NCBI GenBank assembly: GCA_017429165.1
Contig: JAFRPL010000014.1
Coordinates: 66,113 to 130,112 of the forward strand
Length of the DNA stretch: 64,000 bases
Source of the DNA: Clostridia bacterium
GTDB lineage: Bacteria > Bacillota > Clostridia > Oscillospirales > CAG-382
Reading direction: 5' to 3'
The notes under the pieces are model-generated. The model was not told the origin of the DNA. It saw nothing but the letters and a program-made list of their open reading frames with translations, and made no database searches. The position numbers and the translations under genes were made by a program. Below are positions 38,137 through 41,313 of this stretch, in pieces. The first letter of the stretch is position 1. Each line of letters begins with the position of its first letter.

Positions 38137-38445
38137 AACGGCTGAAATACATAATACGGTCATACATTCCGGCATTGTGCGGCAAACACACACGGGAATA
38201 CGGTTTCCGCCTCGGGACAGGCGCTCTTGCGGCACATCCGCCTGCTTGCTTAATGCTGCTTGATCCCTCACCTGACATGATTCACAAGAGCAGATCGCAC
38301 AAGACCCATCCTTCAACGGCTTCCGCCGTACGCAGCTGCACGGTTGCCGACCTCTGCCGGCATTTGACCCCTGCTGCAGCGGATTGCAGGTAACAGGGCA
38401 CCGCTGACTCCCCGGCAAGCATGACCGTATTACGTATTTCAGCAC
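38137..38445 (-). ncRNA. ffs: Signal recognition particle RNA, large bacterial type
   Basis: Minus-strand RNA of about 305-310 bases. The 5' Alu-domain sequence contains GCCGGGGAG, AGCGGTGCCCTGTTACC and GCAATCCGCT, characteristic of clostridial SRP RNA. The S-domain core reads GTCAGG-TGA-GGGA-TCA-AGCAGCA, i.e. the conserved asymmetric loop with a GGGA (GNRA) tetraloop on a UGA/UCA stem. The two ends (38421-38443 and 38141-38163) pair over 23 positions with one G-U, forming a very long helix 1, and a short T-run follows. It scaffolds Ffh and elongation-arrest activity. Position upstream of dnaX matches Bacillus scr. Confidence 0.92.
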
Positions 38446-40919: not shown

Positions 40920-40966
40920 CATACGGTTGCCGCATTACCCTCTTATAAAAAAGCAACCGATCCATT
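40915..40966 (+). repeat. 52-base repeat, copy B (right side of island)
   Basis: Same orientation as 38573-38624 with two differences (a T/C in the ACC-TC stretch and a C/T before the A-run). It begins within the last bases of the RHS-like remnant and is followed by a small TGTCCT-AA-AGGACA hairpin (40974-40987). Confidence 0.92.
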
Positions 40967-40997
40967 CGCGAGGTGTCCTAAAGGACAGTTTATAAAA

Positions 40998-41042
40998 AAC
41001 CGGCTGAGGCAAGGATCATTCCTGACTTCAGTCGGTTTTTTT
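40998..41042 (+). terminator. Terminator at the right end of the island
   Basis: AACCGGCTGA (40998-41007) pairs with TCAGTCGGTT (41028-41037) with one G-U, enclosing a second AGGA/TCCT stem, and seven T's end the element. It would stop plus-strand transcripts from the island. Confidence 0.85.
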
Positions 41043-41077
41043 GTCGCATATCGGTGCAAGCAGGACGTTTGTGTGCC

Positions 41078-41300
41078 TTCCGTCCGGAAAAAGTGATGTT
41101 TGCCCTGCGGGCAAGTGATGAAGTTCGCTTTGCGAACAATGATGTTTTGCTGCTTTGCCGCAAAATGATGTGATGTGTTCCGCTCACGCGCCGAAGGCGC
41201 ACATCATGCCCGAAGGGCACATCATTCGGCGCAGCCGTACATCACGTTCCGCTGTCAGCGGAACACATCGTTCGCCGAGTGTCCTTAAGAACACTCGGCG
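41078..41300. repeat. Array of about ten short hairpins with TGATG/CATCA linkers
   Basis: Hairpins with 3-8 base loops follow each other: TTCCG/CGGAA (41078), TTGCCC/GGGCAA (41100), GTTCGC/GCGAAC (41123), TTTTGC/GCAAAA (41145), GCGCC/GGCGC (41188), TGCCC/GGGCA (41207), CGGC/GCCG (41227), GTTCCGCT/AGCGGAAC (41246) and CGCCGAGTGT/ACACTCGGCG (41273). Linkers are TGATG (five times) in the left part and CATCA or CATC (four times) in the right part. A 13-base inverted repeat, GATGTGTTCCGCT (41172-41184) and AGCGGAACACATC (41257-41269), encloses the middle. It resembles REP/BIME clusters of other bacteria. No coding sequence is evident. Confidence 0.85.
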
Positions 41301-41313
41301 TTCCCGACAGTAG

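What the first reader, a model, noticed from the sequence alone, without database searches (positions are those of the whole stretch)
41078..41300. Hairpin array whose linker motif flips orientation in the middle
About ten short, GC-rich hairpins with different stems are lined up in 223 bases. Linkers read TGATG on the left and CATCA on the right, so the array is mirror-like around about 41185, and a 13-base inverted repeat (41172-41184 and 41257-41269) encloses the centre. The outermost right arm of that repeat also pairs with its neighbour, so alternative folds compete. The stems vary but the linkers are conserved, the reverse of what is seen in simple repeats. It could be a REP/BIME-type cluster, a protein-docking DNA element or a structured RNA.
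Basis: partly seen in the sequence, partly recalled or inferred. Interest (0 to 1): 0.65.

Follow-up and report, generated by a model that had tools for sequence, protein, structure and literature searches.

The report
Mobile hairpin-array element with transfer-origin mimic
The hairpin array is real: it is the core of a 338-base mobile DNA repeat that sits inside gene-end hairpins in gut and rumen Clostridia, carries a copy of a conjugation start site, and explains what the database RNA family 'Gut-1' probably is.

Summary
Confirmed, and larger than reported. 41093-41272 is a structured array: three hairpins, a central arm, three hairpins and a terminal hairpin. It lies inside a ~338-bp dispersed repeat (40965-41302) with imperfect inverted ends. 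Copies 95-98% identical occur at five other places in this genome, in a sister species and in another family of the order. The linker flips because left linkers pair with right linkers (TGATG:CATCA, TGAAG:CTTCA). The 13-bp repeat and the terminal hairpin compete for one strand, and both pairings covary over 18 arrays. Most complete copies sit inside intrinsic-terminator hairpins (permutation p=1e-5). The element also carries a hairpin-plus-CCTGC motif; three conjugative-type loci have the same motif where an oriT belongs, upstream of NikA-like and relaxase genes. The array is exchangeable between copies; its GTGAAAT version is Rfam Gut-1. Gut-1 arrays are multi-copy, abut tRNA/tmRNA terminators (17/30) and often precede PF05635 four-helix-bundle genes. 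REP/RAYT is not supported: no Y1 transposase in this genome. Best reading: a non-autonomous, MITE-like mobilisable element whose array works as alternately folding DNA. Mobility, structure and target are well supported; oriT function is likely but untested; the protein's role is inferred.

The parts
40965..41302 (.). Complete dispersed repeat (MITE-like element), about 338 bp
   Evidence: BLAST boundaries shared by L002, L009, L010, L003 and others, unrelated flanks
40968..40988 (.). Left end, imperfect terminal inverted repeat GCGAGGTGTCCTAAAGGACAG
   Evidence: Alignment of copies
40994..41041 (.). Internal terminator-like hairpin (A-tract, 22-nt arms 82% complementary, T-tract)
   Evidence: present in nearly all copies
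41055..41085 (-). oriT-like motif: hairpin GGACGTTTG/CAAACGTCC next to CCTGCTTG. The right arm is mutated in this copy and intact in most others
   Evidence: Same motif upstream of NikA-like and relaxase genes in G000:C13, L075, L077
41093..41272 (.). Hairpin array (Gut-1-like)
41100..41114 (.). Left hairpin 1
   Evidence: Covarying helix 2
41123..41137 (.). Left hairpin 2
   Evidence: Covarying helix 4
41146..41164 (.). Left hairpin 3
   Evidence: Covarying helix 6
41172..41184 (.). Central arm; pairs long-range with 41257-41269
   Evidence: 93.6% paired, covariation 0.342 vs 0.069 shuffled
41188..41200 (.). Right hairpin 1
   Evidence: Covarying helix 8
41208..41218 (.). Right hairpin 2
   Evidence: Covarying helix 9
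41227..41237 (.). Right hairpin 3
   Evidence: Covarying helix 10
41246..41264 (.). Terminal hairpin; its 3' arm is also the partner of the central arm
   Evidence: Covarying helix 11, competing
41274..41299 (.). Right end: 26-bp palindrome GCCGAGTGTCCTTAAGAACACTCGGC, forming the inverted repeat with the left end

Best explanation
This is one copy of a non-autonomous, MITE-like mobile element of gut and rumen Clostridia. Order: left inverted repeat, bidirectional terminator, oriT-like hairpin, hairpin array, right palindrome. Shown by sequence: it is dispersed and near-identical across genera; complete copies mostly sit inside intrinsic-terminator hairpins; its array is an exchangeable module with a conserved branched fold and a conserved three-strand competition (central arm versus terminal hairpin); its oriT-like part matches the likely oriT of co-resident NikA/relaxase elements. 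Inferred: the array acts as DNA when single-stranded or extruded, bound in trans by the PF05635 four-helix-bundle protein encoded by related array-gene cassettes at tRNA terminators. Terminators are tolerated targets because the hairpin arms and the element's own terminator keep transcription stopping. A resident conjugative element's relaxase can nick the oriT mimic, which would explain near-identical copies in different families.
For: Dispersed copies with common ends and unrelated flanks; 40 further stretches in rumen Clostridia MAGs. Terminator arms flank 19 complete copies, mean score 8.8 vs 6.0 for mismatched pairs, permutation p=1e-5. The window copy's site is filled in G003 and free of the element in G001. 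Covariation of fold and alternative fold. G-T pairs 2.6% of standard pairs vs 7.0% in tRNA stems, p=8e-6. Motif upstream of NikA-like plus PF03432 genes in three loci; in other subfamilies the oriT stem changes compensatorily while CCTGC[CT]TG stays. Array exchange between like ends; Gut-1 at 72-77 bits inside such elements. PF05635 genes directly behind arrays.
Against: No autonomous element with these ends found; in the own genome the end palindrome occurs only with this repeat and one weak, degenerate match. Target-site duplications are not constant: a plausible 7-8 bp in L051 and L230, unclear in others. No nicking, binding or transfer was tested. The window copy is probably old: its flanks are not terminator arms (score 6, background level) and its oriT hairpin arm is mutated. 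About a third of PF05635 loci have no array. The tRNA control for G-T pairs is only a rough yardstick.
Confidence: 0.62

Rival explanations
1. It is a structured non-coding RNA, as Rfam files Gut-1, for instance a small RNA or a read-through 3' RNA of tRNA operons that switches between two folds and binds the four-helix-bundle protein.
For: Rfam Gut-1 matches (31.1 and 29.6 bits here; up to 91 bits in the order). Strong compensatory changes and two conserved competing folds. Arrays follow tRNAs on the same strand by about 33 nt. Relatives of PF05635 such as Avd act with RNA (PMC10053308 describes Avd as essential to retrohoming).
Against: A terminator separates array and tRNA, and the 4HB promoter-like TATAAT lies after the array. 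In the window element the array lies between an internal terminator and a palindrome, with no promoter-like site nearby. G-T pairs are rare. Both strands score equally as Gut-1. Being mobile does not exclude an RNA.
Confidence: 0.22
2. It is a REP/BIME-like cluster moved by a RAYT transposase.
For: Dispersed intergenic hairpins with a conserved word at their foot, in opposite orientation on the two sides.
Against: No PF01797 in the genome although the control search finds it in 5 of 14 controls. The unit is a 338-bp element with its own inverted ends. The linker word differs between arrays.
Confidence: 0.03
3. It is a transcription insulator or mRNA 3'-end stabiliser spread by recombination, with no mobility function of its own.
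For: Sits at terminators and contains terminator hairpins.
Against: Does not explain the oriT-like motif, the exchange of arrays, the competing folds, the PF05635 genes or the precise common ends.
Confidence: 0.08

Closest known systems
Gut-1 RNA (Rfam RF01706; Weinberg et al. 2010, PMC2864571)
   Same: Hairpins separated by one repeated word; the GTGAAAT arrays inside sister copies of this very element are Gut-1 at 72-77 bits
   Different: This array uses TGATG and scores 31 bits, below the gathering score of 50. Gut-1 covers only half of the array. The paper calls it a noncoding RNA known from human gut sequences only; here it is multi-copy, mobile and found in rumen and gut genomes of an order
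Bacterial MITEs (e.g. the Porphyromonas gingivalis MITE with an internal minisatellite, PMC4596501)
   Same: Short, non-coding, imperfect inverted ends, dispersed, internal repeat block
   Different: No parent transposase found, target is terminator hairpins, carries an oriT-like site, internal module is exchangeable and structurally conserved
23S rRNA intervening sequences with S23/IVP protein (PF05635; Coxiella IVS, PMC4990558)
   Same: Short element with complementary ends lodged in a hairpin; the same protein family is encoded by the related cassettes
   Different: Sits in terminators, not in rRNA helices; carries a hairpin array; this copy has no gene
oriT-bearing mobilisable elements lacking a relaxase (hitcher elements, reviewed in PMC11389934)
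   Same: Carries only the cis site and needs a helper relaxase
   Different: Far smaller, dispersed in several copies, lies in chromosomal terminators; transfer not tested
REP/BIME and pneumococcal BOX elements (PMC3049150 for BOX)
   Same: Modular intergenic hairpin repeats
   Different: Different units and no RAYT in this genome

Membership tests
Gut-1 (RF01706) | Score at or above Rfam gathering threshold (50 bits) | tested here: not met
   31.1 and 29.6 bits; sister arrays in the same element type reach 72-77
Gut-1 (RF01706) | Transcribed small RNA | not testable with these tools
   No RNA-seq available
MITE | Short non-coding dispersed copies with common ends | tested here: met
   338 bp, no gene, several copies
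MITE | Terminal inverted repeats | tested here: met
   Imperfect ~21-bp ends
MITE | Target-site duplication of fixed length | tested here: inconclusive
   7-8 bp in L051 and L230 by eye, not constant
MITE | Parent transposon with the same ends | tested here: not met
   In the own genome only this repeat carries the palindrome; two PF05635 loci (L201, L202) in other genomes share it
oriT of a MOBP/NikA-type element | Located upstream of accessory (NikA-like) and relaxase genes | tested here: met
   For the motif in G000:C13, L075, L077; the copy in the element itself has no such genes
oriT of a MOBP/NikA-type element | Inverted repeat next to a CCTG-C nic-like core | tested here: met
   Sequence and compensatory stem changes in other subfamilies; the similarity to MOBP nic sites is from my own knowledge
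oriT of a MOBP/NikA-type element | Nicked by the relaxase | not testable with these tools
   Needs a biochemical assay
REP/BIME with RAYT | RAYT (PF01797) in the genome | tested here: not met
   No match
23S rRNA IVS | Located in a 23S rRNA helix | tested here: not met
   Located between two protein genes
23S rRNA IVS | Encodes S23/IVP protein (PF05635) | tested here: not met
   Not in this copy; present behind related arrays

The most novel reading that the evidence does not exclude
A previously unrecognised class of mobile gene cassettes: hairpin array + PF05635 four-helix-bundle gene + variable cargo gene, inserting next to tRNA and tmRNA terminators and duplicating the terminator. The structured array serves as the DNA recombination site, each array has its own matching linker word, and small oriT-carrying derivatives such as the window element are spread between bacteria by conjugative relaxases. 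Rfam Gut-1 would be the footprint of this system.
Probability: 0.35. Interest if true: 0.88.

Novelty: new variant of a known kind. Interest (0 to 1): 0.72.

Why it matters
It gives an orphan 'RNA' family (Gut-1) a concrete context: a mobile DNA module with two conserved competing folds. It also links hairpin arrays to the widespread four-helix-bundle proteins of unknown function (PF05635), whose 23S rRNA form has long been suspected to be mobile. An oriT mimic on a dispersed 338-bp repeat would seed chromosomes with start points for conjugal transfer, which would matter for gene flow in gut and rumen communities. All of this is directly testable.

Tried and rejected
RAYT link: no PF01797. Named plasmids and phages: no match to the element, none in viral contigs. 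A weak plasmid match to the oriT region proved to lie in what looks like a restriction-modification gene region, with no relaxase beside it, so it was dropped. Literature: 'Gut-1 RNA' as a phrase gave nothing; RF01706 led to one paper; no paper found that ties four-helix-bundle genes to hairpin arrays. An autonomous transposon with the same ends was sought and not found. A linker register with the first left linker paired to the terminal strand was tested and is weaker, because the terminal strand covaries with the central arm. The plain hairpin count is not a good test: GC-rich coding stretches reach similar counts. The first tRNA control for G-T pairs was mis-indexed and was redone.

Full report
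OBSERVATION. The array proper is 41093-41272: left hairpins 41100-41114, 41123-41137, 41146-41164; a central arm 41172-41184; right hairpins 41188-41200, 41208-41218, 41227-41237; a terminal hairpin 41246-41264. It folds better than any of 200 dinucleotide shuffles, with DNA parameters z=-6.8 and RNA parameters z=-4.7.

IT IS A DISPERSED REPEAT. The own genome (2.16 Mb, 37 contigs) has five further near-identical copies, four of which end at contig ends, as expected for repeats that break assemblies. Comparing flanks fixes the unit at about 40965-41302, with imperfect inverted ends GCGAGGTGTCCTAAAGGACAG and CTGTCCTTAAGAACACTCGGC-like. A sister species has a 97-98% copy and several of about 78%, and a genome of another family of the order has a 97-98% copy. 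A pattern joining the internal terminator and the adjacent motif finds 40 stretches in rumen-type Clostridia MAGs. At the window site, G003 has the element while G001 lacks it next to the same thioesterase gene.

TARGET. The two flanks of complete copies are the two arms of an intrinsic terminator, with an A-tract on the left and a T-tract on the right. Over 19 complete copies the arm complementarity is 8.8 versus 6.0 for mismatched pairs, permutation p=1e-5. A clear case is AAAAAAGCACTGC-[element]-GCAGTGCTTTTTT in G039. The window copy itself no longer shows this (score 6). Target duplications are visible in a few copies only.

oriT-LIKE PART. Between terminator and array lies GCAAGCAGGACGTTTGTGTGCCAAACGTCC (consensus; the window copy reads CTTCCGTCC on the right). 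The same 19-mer core occurs in the own genome at one non-repeat place, C13:9283-9301, immediately upstream of a NikA-like gene (PF21983, 3.7e-12) and a MobA/VirD2 relaxase gene (PF03432, 2.5e-38), and downstream of an actin-like gene. Two further loci in other genomes, L075 and L077, have the same order with NikA-like and relaxase genes. In more distant elements of the same build (L228, L230, L236) the stem differs but stays complementary while CCTGC[CT]TG is kept. This is what an oriT copy would look like. That the CCTG-C core resembles MOBP nic sites is from my own knowledge. Function was not tested.

ARRAY STRUCTURE. Eighteen arrays from this element, from tRNA-linked arrays and from PF05635-linked arrays were aligned. 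The structure with left linkers paired to right linkers and local hairpins is formed in 90.6% of cells, with 36 of 64 pairs showing changes on both sides and a covariation score of 0.340 versus 0.133 shuffled; sliding the partners destroys it. The competing long-range helix, central arm to terminal strand, is formed in 93.6% of cells, score 0.342 versus 0.069. RNAalifold independently finds linker-to-linker pairing, 31 of 47 pairs with double changes. So the terminal strand has two conserved partners; all three segments change together (GTTCCGC, TTTGCCC, CTTGCC). The linker flip is simply the two sides of paired axes. G-T pairs make up 2.6% of standard pairs in the arrays versus 7.0% in tRNA stems from the same loci (Fisher p=8e-6), which points to DNA-level or two-strand constraint, though the control is rough.

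GUT-1. The window array matches Rfam Gut-1 on both strands, below the curated threshold. Copies of the same element in which the TGATG array is replaced by a GTGAAAT array score 72-77 bits. In 117 genomes of the order Gut-1 exceeds its threshold in 42, with up to 36 matches (E<=0.001) in one genome. Of 30 Gut-1 loci fetched, 17 have a tRNA or tmRNA on the same strand ending 30-42 nt upstream, the room of one terminator. The Rfam description as a noncoding RNA known only from human gut sequence (PMC2864571) is therefore incomplete.

FOUR-HELIX-BUNDLE GENES. Next to an array in the own genome lies a PF05635 gene (7.5e-27) with the order tRNA-Gln, terminator, array, PF05635 gene, overlapping histidine phosphatase gene, second copy of the terminator, remnant array. 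PF05635 passes its threshold in 54 of 117 genomes. By inspection about 19 of 29 fetched PF05635 loci have a hairpin array directly upstream; with a strict hairpin count, 14 of 27 have five or more upstream versus 4 downstream. Eleven of 29 have a tRNA or tmRNA on the same strand 233-401 nt upstream. A promoter-like TATAAT usually lies between array and gene, so the array need not be part of that mRNA. Downstream genes differ: histidine phosphatase and GNAT (Pfam), MazG-like and TetR-like by eye. L216 holds a 216-bp, 97% identical second copy of terminator end, array and gene start. Two PF05635 loci (L201, L202) carry the same end palindrome as the window element. The closest solved structure is 2RLD, an uncharacterised protein. 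I infer, but have not shown, that the window element is a gene-less derivative of such cassettes and that the protein acts on the array.

VERDICT. Mobile, structured and terminator-targeted: high confidence. oriT mimic: likely. DNA rather than RNA action: moderately likely. Four-helix-bundle protein as trans-acting partner: plausible. No autonomous partner, nicking, binding or transfer has been demonstrated.

Noticed in passing
L142 6217-6260 and 7421-7464: The tRNA-Gln terminator is present twice around the array-PF05635-phosphatase unit, and the second copy matches better as an inverted copy (97%) than as a direct copy (91%), as if the loop had been flipped.
   Followed up: partly
L216, 216 bp upstream of the PF05635 gene and again 752-967 bases after it: Tandem repeat of terminator end, array and start of the PF05635 gene (216 bp, 96.8%), suggesting stacked cassettes at one tRNA.
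   Followed up: partly
L190, L191, L192, L194, L195, L196, L209: PF05635 genes without hairpin arrays are instead often preceded by AT-rich imperfect short tandem repeats (e.g. GCATAATGCATAATTCA).
   Followed up: no
L228 and L230: Related elements carry an extra conserved stretch TTTTGAGATRGGTRAAAGGGTTTTAGGTTCTCCTAACAAGTG between array and oriT-like hairpin.
   Followed up: no
L144 8737-8765 and 8928-8956: The 3' end of a tRNA gene appears to be duplicated beside the terminator next to an array (29 bp, 93%).
   Followed up: no
L146 5583-5771 and 5833-6025: A 190-bp direct repeat (79%), motif GGAGAAGGTAGGACGCCGGGTATTT, of unknown nature.
   Followed up: no
window 38160-38424 (-): Bacterial large SRP RNA (144.8 bits), next to the dnaX-like gene.
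   Followed up: no
L126: Chimeric element: TGATG array with the terminal linker of the GTTATGA type, suggesting recombination between array modules.
   Followed up: no
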